This document shows, in pieces, positions 27,933 to 33,559 of a DNA stretch of 37,349 nucleotides; position 1 is the stretch's first letter; each line of letters starts with the position of its first letter. The position numbers were made by a program, and so were the translations under genes. A model generated the notes under the pieces. It ran no database searches. It had not been told where the DNA came from and was given only the letters and a program-made list of their open reading frames with translations. The DNA lies in NCBI GenBank assembly GCA_022821445.1, contig JAJEDQ010000056.1, positions 1-37,349 of the forward strand. Direction: 5' to 3'. The DNA comes from Acidimicrobiia bacterium (lineage in GTDB: Bacteria; Actinomycetota; Acidimicrobiia; Acidimicrobiales; Bin134).

Positions 27933-29347
27933 CGGGTGGCCCCCCTGGCCGCCAACAGCTCTCGGGCCACGACCCGGTCGTCGAAGGGAATCACCCGGTC
28001 GCCCACCACCTGGGTGGTCTCATGGCCCTTTCCGGCCACCACCATCACATCACCGTCGGATGCGATGTCGAGGCACTGGGCGATGGCCGCCGCCCGGTCG
28101 GATTGGGTGGAGACGCCACCGGAGTTCTCGGGCACTCCGCTCAAAATGTCGGTGATGATGGCCTCTGGGTCCTCAAAACGAGGGTTGTCGGAGGTGACGA
28201 TCACTTGATCGGCCAACTCGGCTGCCACCTTGCCCATCATCGGGCGCTTGCCGGAATCACGATCACCCCCGCAGCCGAACACCACCCGCAGGGATCCTGA
28301 GCCGGTCACCAACTCGCGGGCGGCGGCCAGCACCTGGGCCAGGCCATCAGGAGTGTGGGCATAGTCCACCACCACTGTGAACGGACTATCGGACTCGATG
28401 GTCTCGAACCGGCCCGGCACCGGGGCCGCCGACTCCAACCCGGCAATCACTTCGGGCACGCTGACATTCAGCATCAGGGCAGTCTCTGCCGCAGCCAAGG
28501 CGTTGGCGGCGTTGAAGCGGCCGGTCAGGGACAGGGCGACTTCTTGGCCCTGCCACCGCATGGCCAGGCCCTGCGGCACCACCTCGACCGACAGGTCTGC
28601 GGGGTCATAGCCCACGGAGGGGATACGAGGGCCGGCAAACAGACGCCGGCCGTACTCATCGCTTCGGTTAACCACAGCGCAGTCCGACAGTTGGGGTGTG
28701 AACAACCGGGCCTTGGCGGCGAAGTACTCCTCGATGGTGCGGTGGTAGTCCAAGTGGTCGGGGGTGAGGTTGGTGAACACCGCGGCGTCGAATCGGATGC
28801 CGTCCACCCGGTGTTGAGCCAGCGCGTGGCTCGATACCTCCATCACCACCGCTTGGGTCCCAGCCGATCGCCAACAAGCCAGTTGGTGCTGCAAGTCAAC
28901 CGACTCCAGGGTGGTCAAGACCCCCGTGAGCGTGCCCAGGATCTCGCTTTGCAGTCCGGCCGCATCCAGCACCGACCTCAGCAGGCTGCAAACCGTGGTC
29001 TTGCCATTGGTGCCGGTAACCCCCACCACCGTCATGGAGTGGGACGGGTGGCCGTAGAACTTCGAGCTGATGGGGCCCATGGCTTGGCGCACCGATTTGG
29101 TTTGCAGCTGGGGACAGTCCAAATCGAGCCGACGCTCCACCACCAGCCCCGAGGCCCCCCGGGCCAGCGCGTCGGCTGCGAAGTCGTGGCCGTCGTGGTT
29201 GGCACCCGGCACGCAGAAGAACAATTCGCCGGGATTGACAGATCGGGAGTCGTGGGCCAACCCGGTGATCTCGGCGTTGCCGCTCTTCTCGATCAGCCCG
29301 GGAGCAGCTTCAGCCAGCACCGGCAGCGCCATCGATGGTGCGGTCAT
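27929..29347 (-). CDS. murE: UDP-MurNAc-tripeptide ligase (meso-DAP type)
   Basis: A 472-residue Mur ligase that adds the third stem-peptide residue. The P-loop GTNGKTT lies at 112-118, the lysine-carbamylation region follows SSHAL and NLTPDHLDYH, and DNPR (387-390, in TSDNPRFEDP) is the motif that recognises meso-diaminopimelate. The C-terminal GKGHETTQ is conserved. The cell wall is therefore expected to contain meso-DAP. The ATG overlaps the ftsI stop (ATGA), and its own stop overlaps the mraY ATG. Confidence 0.95.
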   Translation of the reverse strand: MTAPSMALPVLAEAAPGLIEKSGNAEITGLAHDSRSVNPGELFFCVPGANHDGHDFAADALARGASGLVVERRLDLDCPQLQTKSVRQAMGPISSKFYGHPSHSMTVVGVTGTNGKTTVCSLLRSVLDAAGLQSEILGTLTGVLTTLESVDLQHQLACWRSAGTQAVVMEVSSHALAQHRVDGIRFDAAVFTNLTPDHLDYHRTIEEYFAAKARLFTPQLSDCAVVNRSDEYGRRLFAGPRIPSVGYDPADLSVEVVPQGLAMRWQGQEVALSLTGRFNAANALAAAETALMLNVSVPEVIAGLESAAPVPGRFETIESDSPFTVVVDYAHTPDGLAQVLAAARELVTGSGSLRVVFGCGGDRDSGKRPMMGKVAAELADQVIVTSDNPRFEDPEAIITDILSGVPENSGGVSTQSDRAAAIAQCLDIASDGDVMVVAGKGHETTQVVGDRVIPFDDRVVARELLAARGATR

Positions 29348-31356
29348 GGCCCGTTCTCGGCTCCAGGTGTTGGGGCAGGCTCGGCGGTGGGTCCTGACGT
29401 CGGAACTGGCGAAGGCGTTCCCGACGGCTCGGGCTCGGCCACTGGCTGGGGCTCAGTCGCTTCCGTCACCGGCTCGGGCTCGGCCACTGGTTCGGGCTCA
29501 GTCGCTTCCGTCACCGGCTCGGGTTCCGTCGGTTCGGCCACGGCCTCGGGCCTGCTGGTTGTTTCTGAGCCGGAATCAGCCTCAGGAACCAGGGTCGGGG
29601 CCGGCTGGGGGGTGGGGGCAGGTCCTAACTTGGAACCGACGGTGAAGTAGTTGGCGGGTGGGGCGATGCGGAGGCGTTGGAGGGAGTATTTGGCCAATTC
29701 GGCAAACAGCGGGGCGGCCGACTGGCTGGCATAGAAGTTGGTGACCGGCTCGTCGATCACCACAATCATCGAGAGCTGCGGATCCTCGGCGGGATAGAAA
29801 CCGGCAAACGTGGCCGTGTAGCGGCTGAACCCCTCGTCGTCCTCATAGTTGCCGCCTGACAGCACTTTCTGGCCGGTCCCCGTCTTACCGGCAACGGAGT
29901 AGCCCTCAACCTGGGCATTTCGTCCTGTTCCCTCTCGCACAACCGTGACCAACATGTCGGTCATCTGTGAGGCAGTGTGCGCGGAGACCACCCTCACCGG
30001 GTCGCCCTGTTCCACTCGGATCGTCTGGCCATCGGCGTCGACGGCCGATTGCACCAGGGTGGGCGGCACCCGCACCCCTCCGTTGGCCAGGGTGTTGTAC
30101 ACCATCAACACCTGCAACGGGGTGGCCAGGATGCCCTGGCCCAGCGCGAAGCTGGCCACGTCGGTGCCGCTCCAGCTCAAGAGTTGCGGGACCAATCCTG
30201 ACGACTCGCCCCTGAAACCCAGCCCAGTGGGCGTCCCCAGCCCGTACCGGGACATGTAGGCAGCCAGGCGGGTGGAGCCCAGAACCAGAGCCCACTCGAC
30301 GGTGCCGGTGTTGGACGAACGAGCCAGGATCTCCTCCATGCTGTAGAGCACGGTCCCGTACTCGGTGTGGTCGGTGAACGTCTGATCGTAGAGCTCAAGC
30401 CAGTGATTCACTTCGCGCACATGGTTCGGCTCGCCCAGCCCCGTCTCGATCACCCCGGAGAGCGCGACGCTCTTCATCACCGATCCGGGCTCGAATGCCC
30501 AGGTCACCGCGCGGTTCTCGCTGAGGGAGACAGGATTTCCCTCTTGATCTCGACCCACCGAGGCCATGGCCAGGATCTCGCCGGTGCCGGGCACCATGAT
30601 GATGACGGTGCCGCTGGCGGCATTCACCTCTTCAATCTGGTGCTTCAACGCCCGCTCGGCTTCGAACTGCAAGGAGCGGTCGATGGTCAGATACAGGTCG
30701 GCCCCCGGCTGCGCGGGTCTGATGTGACGGGCACCGGTGGGGATTGTGCGCCCGTCTTGGCTGCTCTCCAACACCATCTCGCCGGGCACACCGCCCAGCA
30801 ACTCGTCGTACTGGGATTCGATCCCGCTGATGCCCGTTTGGTCGACGTCCACGGTTCCGACCACGGCCCGGGCCAGGCGGGAACCGGCGGGGTTGAACCG
30901 GGCGGACTCCTCCAACCGGAACACTCCCTTGATTTCGAGGGCGGCCACCGCCGTAGCGATGTCGTCGGGCACGGTACGAGCCAGATAGGCGTGCTGGTCG
31001 GGCTCGCTCAGAAGCTCGAGCAGATGGGTCCCGTCCATGTTCAGCACGGGGGCAAGAGCAGCCGCAGCGGCGGCTGGATCATCCACCTGGCTGGGGTCGG
31101 CCCAGATTGTCCATTGCGGCACCGACAGGGCCAGCGCCACTCCGTTTCGGTCGTAGATCTGGCCCCGGTCCGCGGTCAGCTTGACCGTTCGGGTTCGCTG
31201 CTGCTGGCCGTACTCCACAAAGGCGTCAGAGCTGATGAGCTGAAGGTCAGCCAGCCGGATGCCCAGGACCACGGCCACCAAGGCGAACACAACCGCCATG
31301 GCCGTACCACGGCGACGCCGCGAGCTCCGCCCGGCAATCTTCTCGGAAGGGCTCAC
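29344..31356 (-). CDS. ftsI: Septal penicillin-binding protein (class B PBP)
   Basis: A 670-residue class B PBP, the divisome transpeptidase. A basic cytoplasmic start and one membrane anchor (about 18-38) precede the PBP dimer domain. The transpeptidase motifs are S292-V-M-K295 (nucleophile serine), S347-S-N349 and K491-T-G493. No PASTA domains are present. Instead, the last 85 or so residues form a proline/glutamate/threonine-rich extracytoplasmic tail with repeats like ATEPEPVAEPEPVT. The start is GTG overlapping the ftsL-like stop (GTGA). It should partner FtsW. Confidence 0.95.
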   Translation of the reverse strand: MSPSEKIAGRSSRRRRGTAMAVVFALVAVVLGIRLADLQLISSDAFVEYGQQQRTRTVKLTADRGQIYDRNGVALALSVPQWTIWADPSQVDDPAAAAAALAPVLNMDGTHLLELLSEPDQHAYLARTVPDDIATAVAALEIKGVFRLEESARFNPAGSRLARAVVGTVDVDQTGISGIESQYDELLGGVPGEMVLESSQDGRTIPTGARHIRPAQPGADLYLTIDRSLQFEAERALKHQIEEVNAASGTVIIMVPGTGEILAMASVGRDQEGNPVSLSENRAVTWAFEPGSVMKSVALSGVIETGLGEPNHVREVNHWLELYDQTFTDHTEYGTVLYSMEEILARSSNTGTVEWALVLGSTRLAAYMSRYGLGTPTGLGFRGESSGLVPQLLSWSGTDVASFALGQGILATPLQVLMVYNTLANGGVRVPPTLVQSAVDADGQTIRVEQGDPVRVVSAHTASQMTDMLVTVVREGTGRNAQVEGYSVAGKTGTGQKVLSGGNYEDDEGFSRYTATFAGFYPAEDPQLSMIVVIDEPVTNFYASQSAAPLFAELAKYSLQRLRIAPPANYFTVGSKLGPAPTPQPAPTLVPEADSGSETTSRPEAVAEPTEPEPVTEATEPEPVAEPEPVTEATEPQPVAEPEPSGTPSPVPTSGPTAEPAPTPGAENGP
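29426..29515 (-). repeat. 45-bp tandem repeat encoding the FtsI tail
   Basis: Two 45-bp copies (29426-29470 and 29471-29515), nearly identical, plus a partial third encode 15-residue TEATEPxPVAEPEPV units. The frame is kept. Confidence 0.9.
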
Positions 31357-31742
31357 CTCGCTCCACCCTCGTCTGGTTCCAGCGGGGGCAGGTATGTCCG
31401 GCCATCGGGCTCCACCATCCCCAACCGGTACAGGGCCTCGGCCACGATGCGGTTGGGGGCTTCGGCCCTGGCCACGTTGAGCTGCAATCGGTCGTTGACG
31501 GCTCGAACGTCTTCAATCTGCTGATTGAGGTTGTCCAGAGTGGATTGCCGGTCCACGATCACGGCATGAAGGAAGGCGAGGGCGAACAGGGCGACAACCA
31601 CGGTAATGGCCGCAGCCCAGCCCAGCACGGGCATCAGCCTGCGTTTCGGCCGCGGCGCCGCCCGGAGGTGTTGGCGGGGCTGGTTGGTCCGGTGGGCCGG
31701 GTCGGCCGGCGACGGTTGAGGGCGGTGTTGCGGGGCGACCAT
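31353..31742 (-). CDS. ftsL: FtsL-like divisome protein
   Basis: A 129-residue bitopic protein. A basic, proline-rich cytoplasmic part (1-36) is followed by one membrane segment (about 37-59) and a short extracytoplasmic coiled-coil (QSTLDNLNQQIEDVRAVNDRLQ). This layout and the place between rsmH and ftsI identify it as FtsL, which with FtsB and FtsQ activates FtsWI. Sequence similarity in this family is low, so the call rests mainly on topology and position. The ATG overlaps the rsmH stop (TAATG), and its stop overlaps the ftsI GTG. Confidence 0.85.
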   Translation of the reverse strand: MVAPQHRPQPSPADPAHRTNQPRQHLRAAPRPKRRLMPVLGWAAAITVVVALFALAFLHAVIVDRQSTLDNLNQQIEDVRAVNDRLQLNVARAEAPNRIVAEALYRLGMVEPDGRTYLPPLEPDEGGAR

Positions 31743-32722
31743 TACCCGGCCACCTCACCCTGATCGGCCCCCAGCTTGCAGAACGCCCGATAGCGGGCGC
31801 TTGAGGCTCGGGGATTGTCGGCCACCTCCGCAGGGCTGGGCTTGCGACTGCCCCGGGGAACCAACTCGATTGCGGGTGGGGCCTGGGTGTCAGAGCGGGG
31901 CAGTCCCAGATAGCGGGACTCATCGGAAAGTCCGGCCCGGCGGCGGAGAACCTGTTTGACGATGCGATCCTCCCCGCTGTGGTAGCTGAGCACCACCCCC
32001 CGGCCTTCGGGTGCCATCCGGTTTATGGATGTTTCCAGGGCAGGCTCGATCTGGTTCAGCTCATCGTTTACTGCAATGCGAATGGCCTGAAAGGTCCGCT
32101 TGGCCGGGTGGCCTCCCCGGCGGCGGGCGGGAGCGGGAATGGCATCGCGAACCACCTCGGCCAACTCGGTGGTAGACCCGATCGGCCGAGCCGAAGCGAT
32201 GGCGGCGGCGATGCGGTGGGCGTAGCGCTCATCGCCGTAAGAGCGCAGGATCGTGACCAGTTCGTCTGTTGACCAGGCGTTCACCACTTGGCCGGCCGAG
32301 AGTTGCTGGCCGCCGTCCATCCTCATGTCCAGCGGACCGTCGTGGCGATAGCTGAACCCGCGCTCGGGCTGGTCCAGTTGCGGAGAGCTCACCCCGAAGT
32401 CGAATAGCGATCCCACTATGCAGGCAACGCCCAGGGAATCCAGAACGTCGCCCAGCTGTCCGAAGCTGGCGTGGTGGATCGTGGCGCCGCGGCCGGCCAA
32501 GACGGTGGTGGCGGCCTCGACCGCGGAGGGGTCACGGTCGAGGCCTATTAGCGAGAGGTCAGGGCGGGCGTTCAAGAGCGCCCGAGCGTGACCTCCCCCG
32601 CCCACGGTGGCGTCGAGAAAGGCTCCCGACGGGACCGTAGACAGGTGCTCCACCACTTCTGTCACCATGACGGGGTGATGGACGAAACGACGTTCGATCG
32701 CTGTCGGTGTCCCCCCGTTCAT
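31742..32722 (-). CDS. rsmH: 16S rRNA m4C1402 methyltransferase
   Basis: A 326-residue RsmH (MraW) methyltransferase that methylates N4 of C1402 in the decoding site. It shows HHPVMVTEVVEHL at the start, the SAM loop DATVGGGGHA, FDFGVSSPQLDQPERGFSY, and RRGGHPAKRTFQAIRIAVNDEL. The start is ATG with a near-perfect GGGAGGTGA ribosome site. A 264-nt structured leader separates it from mraZ. Confidence 0.96.
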   Translation of the reverse strand: MNGGTPTAIERRFVHHPVMVTEVVEHLSTVPSGAFLDATVGGGGHARALLNARPDLSLIGLDRDPSAVEAATTVLAGRGATIHHASFGQLGDVLDSLGVACIVGSLFDFGVSSPQLDQPERGFSYRHDGPLDMRMDGGQQLSAGQVVNAWSTDELVTILRSYGDERYAHRIAAAIASARPIGSTTELAEVVRDAIPAPARRRGGHPAKRTFQAIRIAVNDELNQIEPALETSINRMAPEGRGVVLSYHSGEDRIVKQVLRRRAGLSDESRYLGLPRSDTQAPPAIELVPRGSRKPSPAEVADNPRASSARYRAFCKLGADQGEVAG

Positions 32723-32729
32723 GATTTTT

Positions 32730-32737
32730 CACCTCCC
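32730..32737 (-). promoter_or_regulatory. Strong rsmH ribosome-binding site
   Basis: GGGAGGTG on the minus strand lies seven bases before the ATG, close to the full anti-Shine-Dalgarno complement and one of the strongest in the window. It is directly downstream of the structured leader, which could gate access to it. Confidence 0.8.
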
Positions 32738-32745
32738 TGGCGGCT

Positions 32746-32758
32746 CAGCAGACTGCTG
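32746..32758 (-). other. Small hairpin just before the rsmH ribosome site
   Basis: CAGCAG and CTGCTG are perfect complements around one base, so three to five pairs can form around a small loop. It ends eight bases before the ribosome site. Confidence 0.4.
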
Positions 32759-32781
32759 CGAGAAGGGCCTGTTTTTTGCGC

Positions 32782-32817
32782 CCGATGGGATCGAACGGCA
32801 AGAATGTCGCCCATCGG
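32782..32817 (-). other. 8-bp stem downstream of the multibranched leader RNA
   Basis: CCGATGGG and CCCATCGG arms enclose a 20-base loop. Its first two bases overlap the end of the large stem's 3' arm, so the two structures must either share that boundary or compete. Confidence 0.5.
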
Positions 32818-32920
32818 CAGTCCTCCGCCCGGCGACCGCACTCCGGGATTTCTCCCCGGTTGTGTCAGATGGCAAGCGGGCGGAGTAGGGGCCTTCCATC
32901 TCGTCGGACGGAGGACTGCC
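32816..32920 (-). ncRNA. Multibranched structured leader RNA between mraZ and rsmH (mraW-RNA-like candidate)
   Basis: On the minus strand GGCAGUCCUCCGUCCG (32905-32920) pairs with CGGGCGGAGGACUGCC (32816-32831): sixteen pairs including one G-U. The 73-nt interior holds two further hairpins: AGAUGG/CCAUCU extended by AGG/CUU pairs after one mismatch, and CCGGG/CCCGG with a short A-rich loop. The result is a compact three-way-junction RNA of 105 nt transcribed with the operon. A structured mraW RNA motif has been described in actinobacteria upstream of this gene. The position agrees, but I could not compare the consensus. Confidence 0.65.
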
Positions 32921-32935
32921 CATGAGCGCACTCCT

Positions 32936-32962
32936 GGTCGGCCTACACGGAGGTCACCGACC
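32936..32962 (-). other. Bulged hairpin 5' of the multibranched RNA
   Basis: GGTCGG pairs with CCGACC. After a three-base bulge, CCT pairs with AGG around a six-base loop. It lies between the mraZ stop and the large structure and may belong to the same leader RNA. Confidence 0.5.
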
Positions 32963-32986
32963 TTGTTGTCTGTCTGCGAATCCACA

Positions 32987-33394
32987 TCACAACCACCGGT
33001 CTACGTCTGCCTCGCCGAGTTCGGCTTGCAGCGACTGCCATTGCTCCGCGTCCCACACCTCGCCGCGGTTGAACACACCGACCAGCACCACGTTCTTGTC
33101 CAATCCCAGCACCTCACGCTTGGAGGATGGGAGGTTCAACCGACCTTGGGCATCCACGGTGGCCGGTTCGAGGCTGGAGGAGAATGCCCGCAGTTCGTCG
33201 CCCGTGGCCTCTCCGGCCCGAACCGCCGCCTCGAGCCGCTCCAGCGCGCTGCGGGCCTCATCCGCAGTCCAGATGCCGAGGCACTGCCTGTAGATGGCCA
33301 CGTAGGCCCCTTCAGCCAGCACCGAGCGGAAGACCGGCGGCAACGAGAGCCGGCCCTTGTCGTCCAGGGAACGCGTGTGCTCACCGGTGAGCAC
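32987..33394 (-). CDS. mraZ: Transcriptional regulator MraZ
   Basis: About 135 residues with two SpoVT/AbrB-like MraZ repeats: LDDKGRLSLPPVFR in the first half and VDAQGRLNLPSSKR in the second. MraZ forms a ring that binds repeated GTGGG-type boxes and controls the dcw operon. The track uses the ATG at 33406. I prefer the GTG at 33394, because VLTGEHTRSLDDKGR aligns without gaps to the usual family start and GGGGGG lies four bases upstream. The operator (separate entry) lies immediately upstream, so autoregulation is expected. Confidence 0.94.
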   Translation of the reverse strand: MLTGEHTRSLDDKGRLSLPPVFRSVLAEGAYVAIYRQCLGIWTADEARSALERLEAAVRAGEATGDELRAFSSSLEPATVDAQGRLNLPSSKREVLGLDKNVVLVGVFNRGEVWDAEQWQSLQAELGEADVDRWL

Positions 33395-33412
33395 GATTCC
33401 CCCCATCGGGTC

Positions 33413-33467
33413 CCGAGTAATTCCCCTTCTCTCCCACTTCGTCCCACACTATCCCTTATTACCCCAC
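33413..33467 (-). promoter_or_regulatory. MraZ operator: six boxes in 10-bp phase
   Basis: On the minus strand, boxes at exact 10-bp intervals read GTGGG, AAGGG, GTGGG, GTGGG, AGGGG and CTCGG, each separated by five bases. Three are perfect matches to the known MraZ box. The array overlaps the proposed mraZ promoter and runs to within 20 bases of the start codon. Confidence 0.85.
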
Positions 33468-33475
33468 TAGCGCAA
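33446..33475 (-). promoter_or_regulatory. Proposed mraZ/dcw promoter
   Basis: TTGCGC (33470-33475) and TAGTGT (33446-33451) are separated by 18 bases. The -10 element overlaps one MraZ box and the spacer holds two more, as expected for a repressed promoter. Assignment is by pattern only. Confidence 0.5.
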
Positions 33476-33559
33476 CTCTATGCAGGGAATTTGAGGGCCG
33501 GGGTTCCACCGCGCCCGCGTGGAGCCGCAAACGTGAATGAGCGCGGACGCGAACAGAAA

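What the first reader, a model, noticed from the sequence alone, without database searches (positions are those of the whole stretch)
32723..32986. Densely structured leader RNA between mraZ and rsmH
The 264-nt gap holds four separable structures on the transcribed strand: a bulged hairpin, a 105-nt element closed by a 16-bp stem with two inner hairpins, an 8-bp stem sharing two bases with it, and a small hairpin just before a near-perfect ribosome site. A 16-pair helix spanning 105 nt is very unlikely by chance. The actinobacterial mraW RNA motif is known from this position, so this is either a divergent member or a new class controlling the whole cell-wall operon. The overlap of two stems hints at a switch.
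Basis: partly seen in the sequence, partly recalled or inferred. Interest (0 to 1): 0.78.

Follow-up and report, generated by a model that had tools for sequence, protein, structure and literature searches.

The report
New leader RNA locking rsmH translation
Between the first two genes of the cell-division operon, Acidimicrobiia bacteria carry a previously uncatalogued folded RNA whose main stem hides the ribosome-binding site and, in most relatives, the start codon of the next gene, rsmH, so it probably controls when that operon is translated.

Summary
The structure is real and is a new RNA family. The core is 123 nt (32807-32929, minus strand): a 27-position outer helix enclosing two hairpins in a three-way junction. 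It folds 6.4 SD better than shuffles. It is 97% identical across the genus, against 86% for the end of mraZ and 68-84% for the flanks. In an unbiased alignment of 100 distinct sequences, 44 of 46 pairs show two-sided compensatory changes and 90% of cells pair (0/500 shuffles). It occurs in 140/198 genomes of the order and in other orders of Acidimicrobiia, and in none of the phylum sample outside the class. It always lies between mraZ and rsmH. It is not the Rfam mraW RNA (RF01746): that sits at the same place in Actinomycetes but is a single long hairpin, and neither model finds the other.

The helix 3' arm holds a Shine-Dalgarno site (95/100) and a start codon (79/100). In 47 of 78 checkable relatives that codon opens RsmH itself; in the window it opens a 31-codon ORF whose stop overlaps the rsmH start (ATGA). 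The likeliest role is translational control, with the near-invariant loop CUCCGCCC as recognition site. That loop best matches, among all rRNA, the RsmH target around C1402: suggestive, not proven.

The parts
32807..32929 (-). Conserved leader RNA core: outer helix plus two inner hairpins in a three-way junction
   Evidence: z -6.36; 44/46 pairs covary in 100 distinct sequences; model R1 127.8 bits in own genome, one copy
32902..32929 (-). 5' arm of outer helix, anti-Shine-Dalgarno side (GCGCUCAUGGGCAGUCCUCCGUCCGACG)
   Evidence: 26 of 27 pairs with changes on both sides
32807..32834 (-). 3' arm of outer helix, carrying the Shine-Dalgarno site and AUG
   Evidence: SD-like 4-mer in 95/100 and start codon in 79/100 relatives
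32821..32826 (-). Shine-Dalgarno site GGAGGA inside the helix, 6 nt before the AUG
   Evidence: sequence; conservation
32812..32814 (-). AUG paired in the helix; in 47 of 78 checkable relatives this is the rsmH start codon
32719..32814 (-). 31-codon ORF from the helix AUG; its TGA overlaps the rsmH ATG (ATGA), suggesting translational coupling
   Evidence: sequence; exact overlap in 13 of 29 frame-shifted relatives against 4 of 29 in the control frame
32868..32900 (-). Inner hairpin 1 (GAUGGAAG...CUUGCCAUC)
   Evidence: 8 of 8 pairs with two-sided changes in A3
32877..32892 (-). Loop of hairpin 1, GCCCCUACUCCGCCCG; core CUCCGCCC 91-100% conserved, best rRNA match 16S 1396-1405
32838..32865 (-). 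Inner hairpin 2, loop AGAAA/AGACA closed by GGGG/UCCC
   Evidence: 10 of 11 pairs with two-sided changes
32780..32798 (-). Genus-specific small hairpin downstream of the core (CGUUCGAUCCCAUCGGGCG)
   Evidence: mostly kept within the genus, limited compensation
31742..32722 (-). rsmH (16S rRNA C1402 N4-methyltransferase), the gene that always follows
   Evidence: TIGR00006 296 bits; downstream in 77/77 loci with enough sequence
32987..33406 (-). mraZ, the gene that always precedes
   Evidence: TIGR00242 74.6 bits, below its cut-off of 98.35, plus position; upstream in 75/75 loci with enough sequence

Best explanation
A class-wide cis-regulatory leader RNA of Acidimicrobiia sits in the mraZ-rsmH intercistronic region of the division/cell-wall operon. 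Its long outer helix sequesters the Shine-Dalgarno site and a start codon. In most relatives that is the start codon of rsmH. In others, including the window, it starts a short ORF translationally coupled to rsmH; in a minority the codon has been lost. Shown by comparison: the structure, its position, and the placement of the ribosome-binding site in the helix. Inferred: that the folded helix holds translation of rsmH, and through it expression of the downstream ftsI-mur genes, in a low state until a factor recognising the near-invariant hairpin-1 loop, or an RNase, changes the fold. The factor is unknown; RsmH itself is one candidate.
For: Structure: 100 distinct sequences not chosen by the loop motif, 90.3% of cells paired, 44/46 pairs with two-sided changes, 0/500 shuffles on every measure; sliding the partners by 1-3 columns drops pairing to 37-46%. 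The 14 strongest covarying column pairs are all predicted pairs. G.U cells (414) exceed A.C cells (147), so the rsmH strand is the folded one; the window scores 127.8 bits on this strand and 39.2 on the other. Distribution: 140/198 genomes of the order, plus other orders of the class, none outside it in a 297-genome phylum sample. Single copy (second matches are the same place on the other strand); always mraZ upstream (75/75), rsmH downstream (77/77), ftsI further down (44/44). Function: SD in the 3' arm in 95/100 and start codon in 79/100. The helix start codon is in frame and open into RsmH in 47 of 78 checkable loci; in 29 of these no other in-frame start precedes the conserved HxPV motif, which lies only 6-15 codons in for most. 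Where the codon is out of frame its ORF ends exactly on an rsmH start (ATGA-type) in 13/29 loci, against 4/29 for the other frame. Core 97% identical in the genus against 68-84% in its flanks.
Against: In 15 of 78 checkable relatives the helix has no start codon at that place while the helix is kept by compensation, so start-codon sequestration cannot be its only role. A helix this stable (-72.7 kcal/mol for the core) in front of an operon with essential genes needs an opener, and none is identified. No expression, probing or binding data exist. The synteny is never broken, so rsmH-specific control cannot be separated from operon-level control. The 4/29 control rate shows that some apparent couplings are chance. 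Some rsmH starts were called by motif, not by experiment.
Confidence: 0.6

Rival explanations
1. RNase III processing element: the long helix is cut to separate mraZ from the rsmH operon mRNA, setting stability or freeing the ribosome-binding site, with no ligand or regulator.
For: About 23-27 nearly continuous pairs in an intercistronic position. Kept even where the start codon is lost. In C. glutamicum a mapped 5' end lies inside the 3' part of the analogous mraW RNA (PMC3890552).
Against: Does not explain the near-invariant 8-nt loop core of hairpin 1 (91-100% per position), the conserved second hairpin, or the fixed helix sequence over the SD.
Confidence: 0.2
2. Transcription-level element: an attenuator or a processive antitermination RNA near the start of a long operon.
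For: Position between genes 1 and 2 of a long operon. Role independent of the start codon in some lineages. Part of the genus has AUUUUU soon after the helix.
Against: The U-run is absent in the window (AUUCUU) and in most relatives. No terminator-like site on this strand. SD plus start codon in the helix in most of the class is unexplained.
Confidence: 0.12
3. Metabolite riboswitch using the three-way junction as aptamer.
For: Three-way junction with conserved single-stranded loops and SD control is a common riboswitch layout (general knowledge; structure).
Against: Never found upstream of any gene other than rsmH, whereas riboswitch classes usually occur in front of several genes. The conserved bases are in terminal loops, not the junction core.
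Confidence: 0.08

Closest known systems
mraW RNA (Rfam RF01746, Actinomycetes)
   Same: Same position between mraZ and rsmH, sense strand, long stem, C-rich terminal loop (ACUUCCCC there, ACUCCGCC here: ACUYCSCC).
   Different: Single long hairpin, no three-way junction, no second hairpin; neither model detects the other.
UpsM and the extended dcw 5' leader of Rhodobacteraceae (PMC5089854)
   Same: A structured leader RNA of the same gene cluster.
   Different: Lies upstream of mraZ, contains a Rho-independent terminator and yields an RNase E-processed trans-acting sRNA; different lineage.
Ribosomal-protein autoregulatory leaders (as a way of working; from general knowledge)
   Same: One copy per genome, always in front of one operon encoding an rRNA-acting protein, SD held in structure, loop resembling the protein's rRNA site.
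   Different: The product is a methyltransferase, and binding to the leader is untested; one invariant loop base (U) mismatches the rRNA (A1398).

Membership tests
mraW RNA (RF01746) | Covariance-model score at or above the gathering score of 50 bits | tested here: not met
   No hit in the window at gathering, none at E<=10 in 32650-33050, none at E<=5 in 14 loci, own genome 0
mraW RNA (RF01746) | Single extended hairpin with loop ACUUCCCC | tested here: not met
   Three-way junction with loop CCCCUACUCCGCCCG supported by covariation
mraW RNA (RF01746) | Located between mraZ and mraW/rsmH in Actinomycetota | tested here: met
Cis-regulatory leader RNA with SD sequestration (kind) | Conserved structure with compensatory changes | tested here: met
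Cis-regulatory leader RNA with SD sequestration (kind) | SD and start codon of the regulated gene lie in the helix | tested here: met
   47 of 78 checkable relatives directly; by a coupled ORF in the window
Cis-regulatory leader RNA with SD sequestration (kind) | Structure changes expression of the downstream gene | not testable with these tools
   Needs reporter assays
RsmH autoregulatory leader (hypothesis) | Leader resembles the RsmH target in 16S rRNA | tested here: inconclusive
   Best of all 16S and 23S 10-mers is 16S 1396-1405 (mean 8.4/10); score and site together in 0.4% of permuted cores, but the score alone in 7.6%, and the invariant U is a mismatch
RsmH autoregulatory leader (hypothesis) | RsmH binds or methylates the leader | not testable with these tools
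   Needs binding and m4C mapping
Intrinsic terminator/attenuator | Stem followed by a U-run on the transcribed strand | tested here: not met
   No such site on the minus strand of 32600-33500; U-run only in part of the genus

The most novel reading that the evidence does not exclude
The leader is a molecular mimic of the decoding-site rRNA. Its hairpin-1 loop copies 16S 1396-1405, the site RsmH methylates at C1402. Free RsmH binds (or methylates) its own mRNA leader and so sets its own translation and, through the operon, links completion of 30S subunits to cell-wall and division genes.
Probability: 0.17. Interest if true: 0.92.

Novelty: new variant of a known kind. Interest (0 to 1): 0.7.

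Why it matters
It adds a strongly supported RNA family, absent from Rfam 15, at the head of one of the most conserved bacterial operons, in a class known mostly from metagenomes. Together with mraW RNA it shows that at least two actinobacterial classes hold different structured RNAs at the same mraZ-rsmH position with similar C-rich loops. That makes it testable what controls the step from mraZ to rsmH-ftsI, and whether an rRNA methyltransferase couples ribosome maturation to division.

Tried and rejected
(1) Divergent RF01746 member: rejected by reciprocal model searches. (3) A protein-coding reading of the element: indels shift frame between relatives and the 5' AUG is often AUC (alignment A1; upstream sequences). 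(4) Intrinsic terminator: not found. (5) Mobile or repeated element: one copy per genome, fixed synteny. (6) My first count of how often the helix AUG is the rsmH start (22/80) came largely from loci chosen by a loop motif; the unbiased set gives 47/78, so the first figure was dropped. (7) A hairpin1-hairpin2 loop contact: columns 80-125 covary, but the change sits mainly in one clade. (8) Loop pairing with the 3' arm: perfect in the window (CUCCGCCCG/CGGGCGGAG) but not kept in relatives on inspection.

Full report
WHAT IS THERE. The window's dcw operon runs on the minus strand: mraZ (33406-32987), a 264-nt gap, rsmH (32722-31742), ftsI and murE. rsmH is secure (TIGR00006, 296 bits). mraZ rests on a below-cut-off match (TIGR00242, 74.6 of 98.35 bits) plus its position; ftsI and murE are named from sequence and gene order. 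On the transcribed strand the gap folds better than all 200 shuffles (z -3.67). Nearly all of this comes from a 123-nt core, 32807-32929 (z -6.36, -72.7 kcal/mol). The core has an outer helix of 7-8 pairs, one mismatch, then 16 uninterrupted pairs. Inside are hairpin 1 with a 16-nt loop GCCCCUACUCCGCCCG and hairpin 2 with a GGGGAGAAAUCCC stem-loop.

COMPARATIVE EVIDENCE. rsmH loci from 60 relatives and their upstream sequences showed the element across the order. A hand-checked seed of 23 sequences (A1) gave 90.6% paired cells and two-sided changes at 34 of 46 pairs. Model R1 then found it in 140 of 198 genomes of the order, and in five genomes of other orders of the class among 297 phylum genomes, with none outside the class. 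A pattern scan of 84,980 species genomes returned 100 stretches; the 80 listed all carry the element by R1. Their record titles are mostly Acidimicrobiia, Acidimicrobiales or plain Actinomycetota/Actinobacteria. Three are titled Acidobacteria and three Bifidobacterium breve; the Acidobacteria-titled ones have RsmH 54-55% identical to the window's, so these titles look wrong. Contig lengths tie the window's genus to Acidimicrobiia bins (e.g. L117 and G015, 335,093 bases).

Because pattern-picked loci inflate loop conservation, I built a second alignment only from loci found through rsmH or through the model (A3, 100 distinct sequences). There 90.3% of cells pair, 44 of 46 pairs change on both sides, 0/500 shuffles reach any measure, and sliding partners by 1-3 columns destroys pairing. 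The alignment was fitted to the model, which favours the structure, but the mutual-information ranking, made without using the pairs, also puts 14 predicted pairs first. Within the genus the core is 97% identical, against 86% for the adjacent mraZ codons and 68%, 84% and 80% for the rest of the gap.

The 105-nt element is right but incomplete: the helix goes on through the AUG. In relatives AUG becomes AUA or AUC with matching changes in the 5' arm (GCGCUUAU/AUAAGCGC, GCGGUUAU/AUAACCGC, UCGCUGAU/AUCAGCGA), so pairing rather than the codon is what is kept there. The 8-bp overlapping stem exists only in the window and its three closest relatives. A different small hairpin (32780-32798) is mostly kept in the genus. 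The 5' bulged hairpin is kept only in nearest relatives, and the last small hairpin is not conserved.

RELATION TO TRANSLATION. The 3' arm carries an SD-like tetramer in 95 of 100 sequences and a start codon at a fixed place in 79 of 100. I located the RsmH N-terminus by its HxPV motif. Of 78 checkable loci in the unbiased set, in 47 the helix codon is in frame and open into RsmH, and in 29 of these it is the only possible start. Of 29 deduplicated loci (both sets) where it is out of frame, 13 have an ORF ending exactly on an rsmH start (ATGA/GTGA type), against 4 of 29 for the other non-rsmH frame. The window is one of them: 31 codons from 32814, TGA at 32721-32719, rsmH ATG at 32722-32720. 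In 15 of 78 the codon is absent. These facts make control of translation initiation the most economical reading, though not one that covers every lineage. Whether the helix is opened or closed by a factor is inference.

THE LOOP. The core CUCCGCCC is 91-100% conserved per position. Of all 10-mers in the 16S and 23S rRNA of a genus member, the best match is 16S 1396-1405 (ACACCGCCCG against ACUCCGCCCG), which contains C1402, the base RsmH methylates (TIGR00006 description). Permuting the loop positions reaches that score somewhere in rRNA in 7.6% of cases, puts the best site over C1402 in 4.7%, and both in 0.4%. Resampled elements contain a 9/10 match in 1.2%. Against mimicry: the hypothesis was formed after seeing the loop; the invariant U (100%) is the mismatch to A1398; and the mraW RNA, in front of the same gene, has ACUUCCCC, which shares the U but not the rRNA match. 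I rate autoregulation by RsmH at about 0.17.

COMPARISON WITH THE KNOWN. RF01746 (mraW RNA) occupies the same gap in Actinomycetes but has another architecture and is mutually undetectable with R1. It is itself only a candidate motif from comparative genomics (PMC2864571), listed as predicted and transcribed in corynebacteria (PMC3890552, PMC5784534). UpsM (PMC5089854) is upstream of mraZ and unrelated. No paper found in the held library describes an Acidimicrobiia rsmH leader; most subscription papers are not held.

VERDICT. Real, class-wide, not in Rfam 15; best described as a new cis-regulatory RNA family of a known kind. The structure is as well supported as sequence data allow; the mechanism is a reasoned inference.

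Noticed in passing
L217, L221, L224, L235, L238, L242, L253, L254, L258, L266, L275 (other Actinomycetota classes), upstream of rsmH: Between mraZ and rsmH there is often a small ORF (about 45-65 aa) with one hydrophobic stretch, e.g. MAKRIAAPRTRLARELSRSIMLLALTGSSVGGFLGMVAIATRALGRG; of four tested no Pfam match reached its cut-off, and of three tested no NCBIfam match was found. It looks like an unnamed small membrane protein of the dcw operon.
   Followed up: partly
L240, L241 (large, Streptomyces-like genomes by size): A long hairpin with a CUUCCC(C)-containing segment lies upstream of rsmH, resembling mraW RNA but not recovered by RF01746, which suggests that the Rfam model misses members (by eye).
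   Followed up: no
C. glutamicum, reported in PMC3890552: The mapped 5' end of mraW (2,266,932) lies inside the 3' part of the mraW RNA (2,267,021-2,266,916); in C. diphtheriae the motif lies upstream of the TSS (PMC5784534). This may mean processing within the hairpin rather than a promoter.
   Followed up: no
window 29344-31356 (-): The FtsI/PBP-like protein ends in a long Pro/Glu/Thr-rich repetitive tail (EPVTEATEPEPVAEPEP...).
   Followed up: no
window 32787-32806 (-) and the same place in L010-L015, L017: Right after the core, part of the genus has GCGCCAUUUUUAUCG where the window has GCGACAUUCUUGCCG: a conserved block with a U-run in one subgroup, function unclear.
   Followed up: partly
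alignment A3 columns 80 and 125: The last base of the hairpin-1 loop and the last base of the hairpin-2 loop covary (G-A to A-C), mostly in one clade; a possible loop-loop contact.
   Followed up: partly
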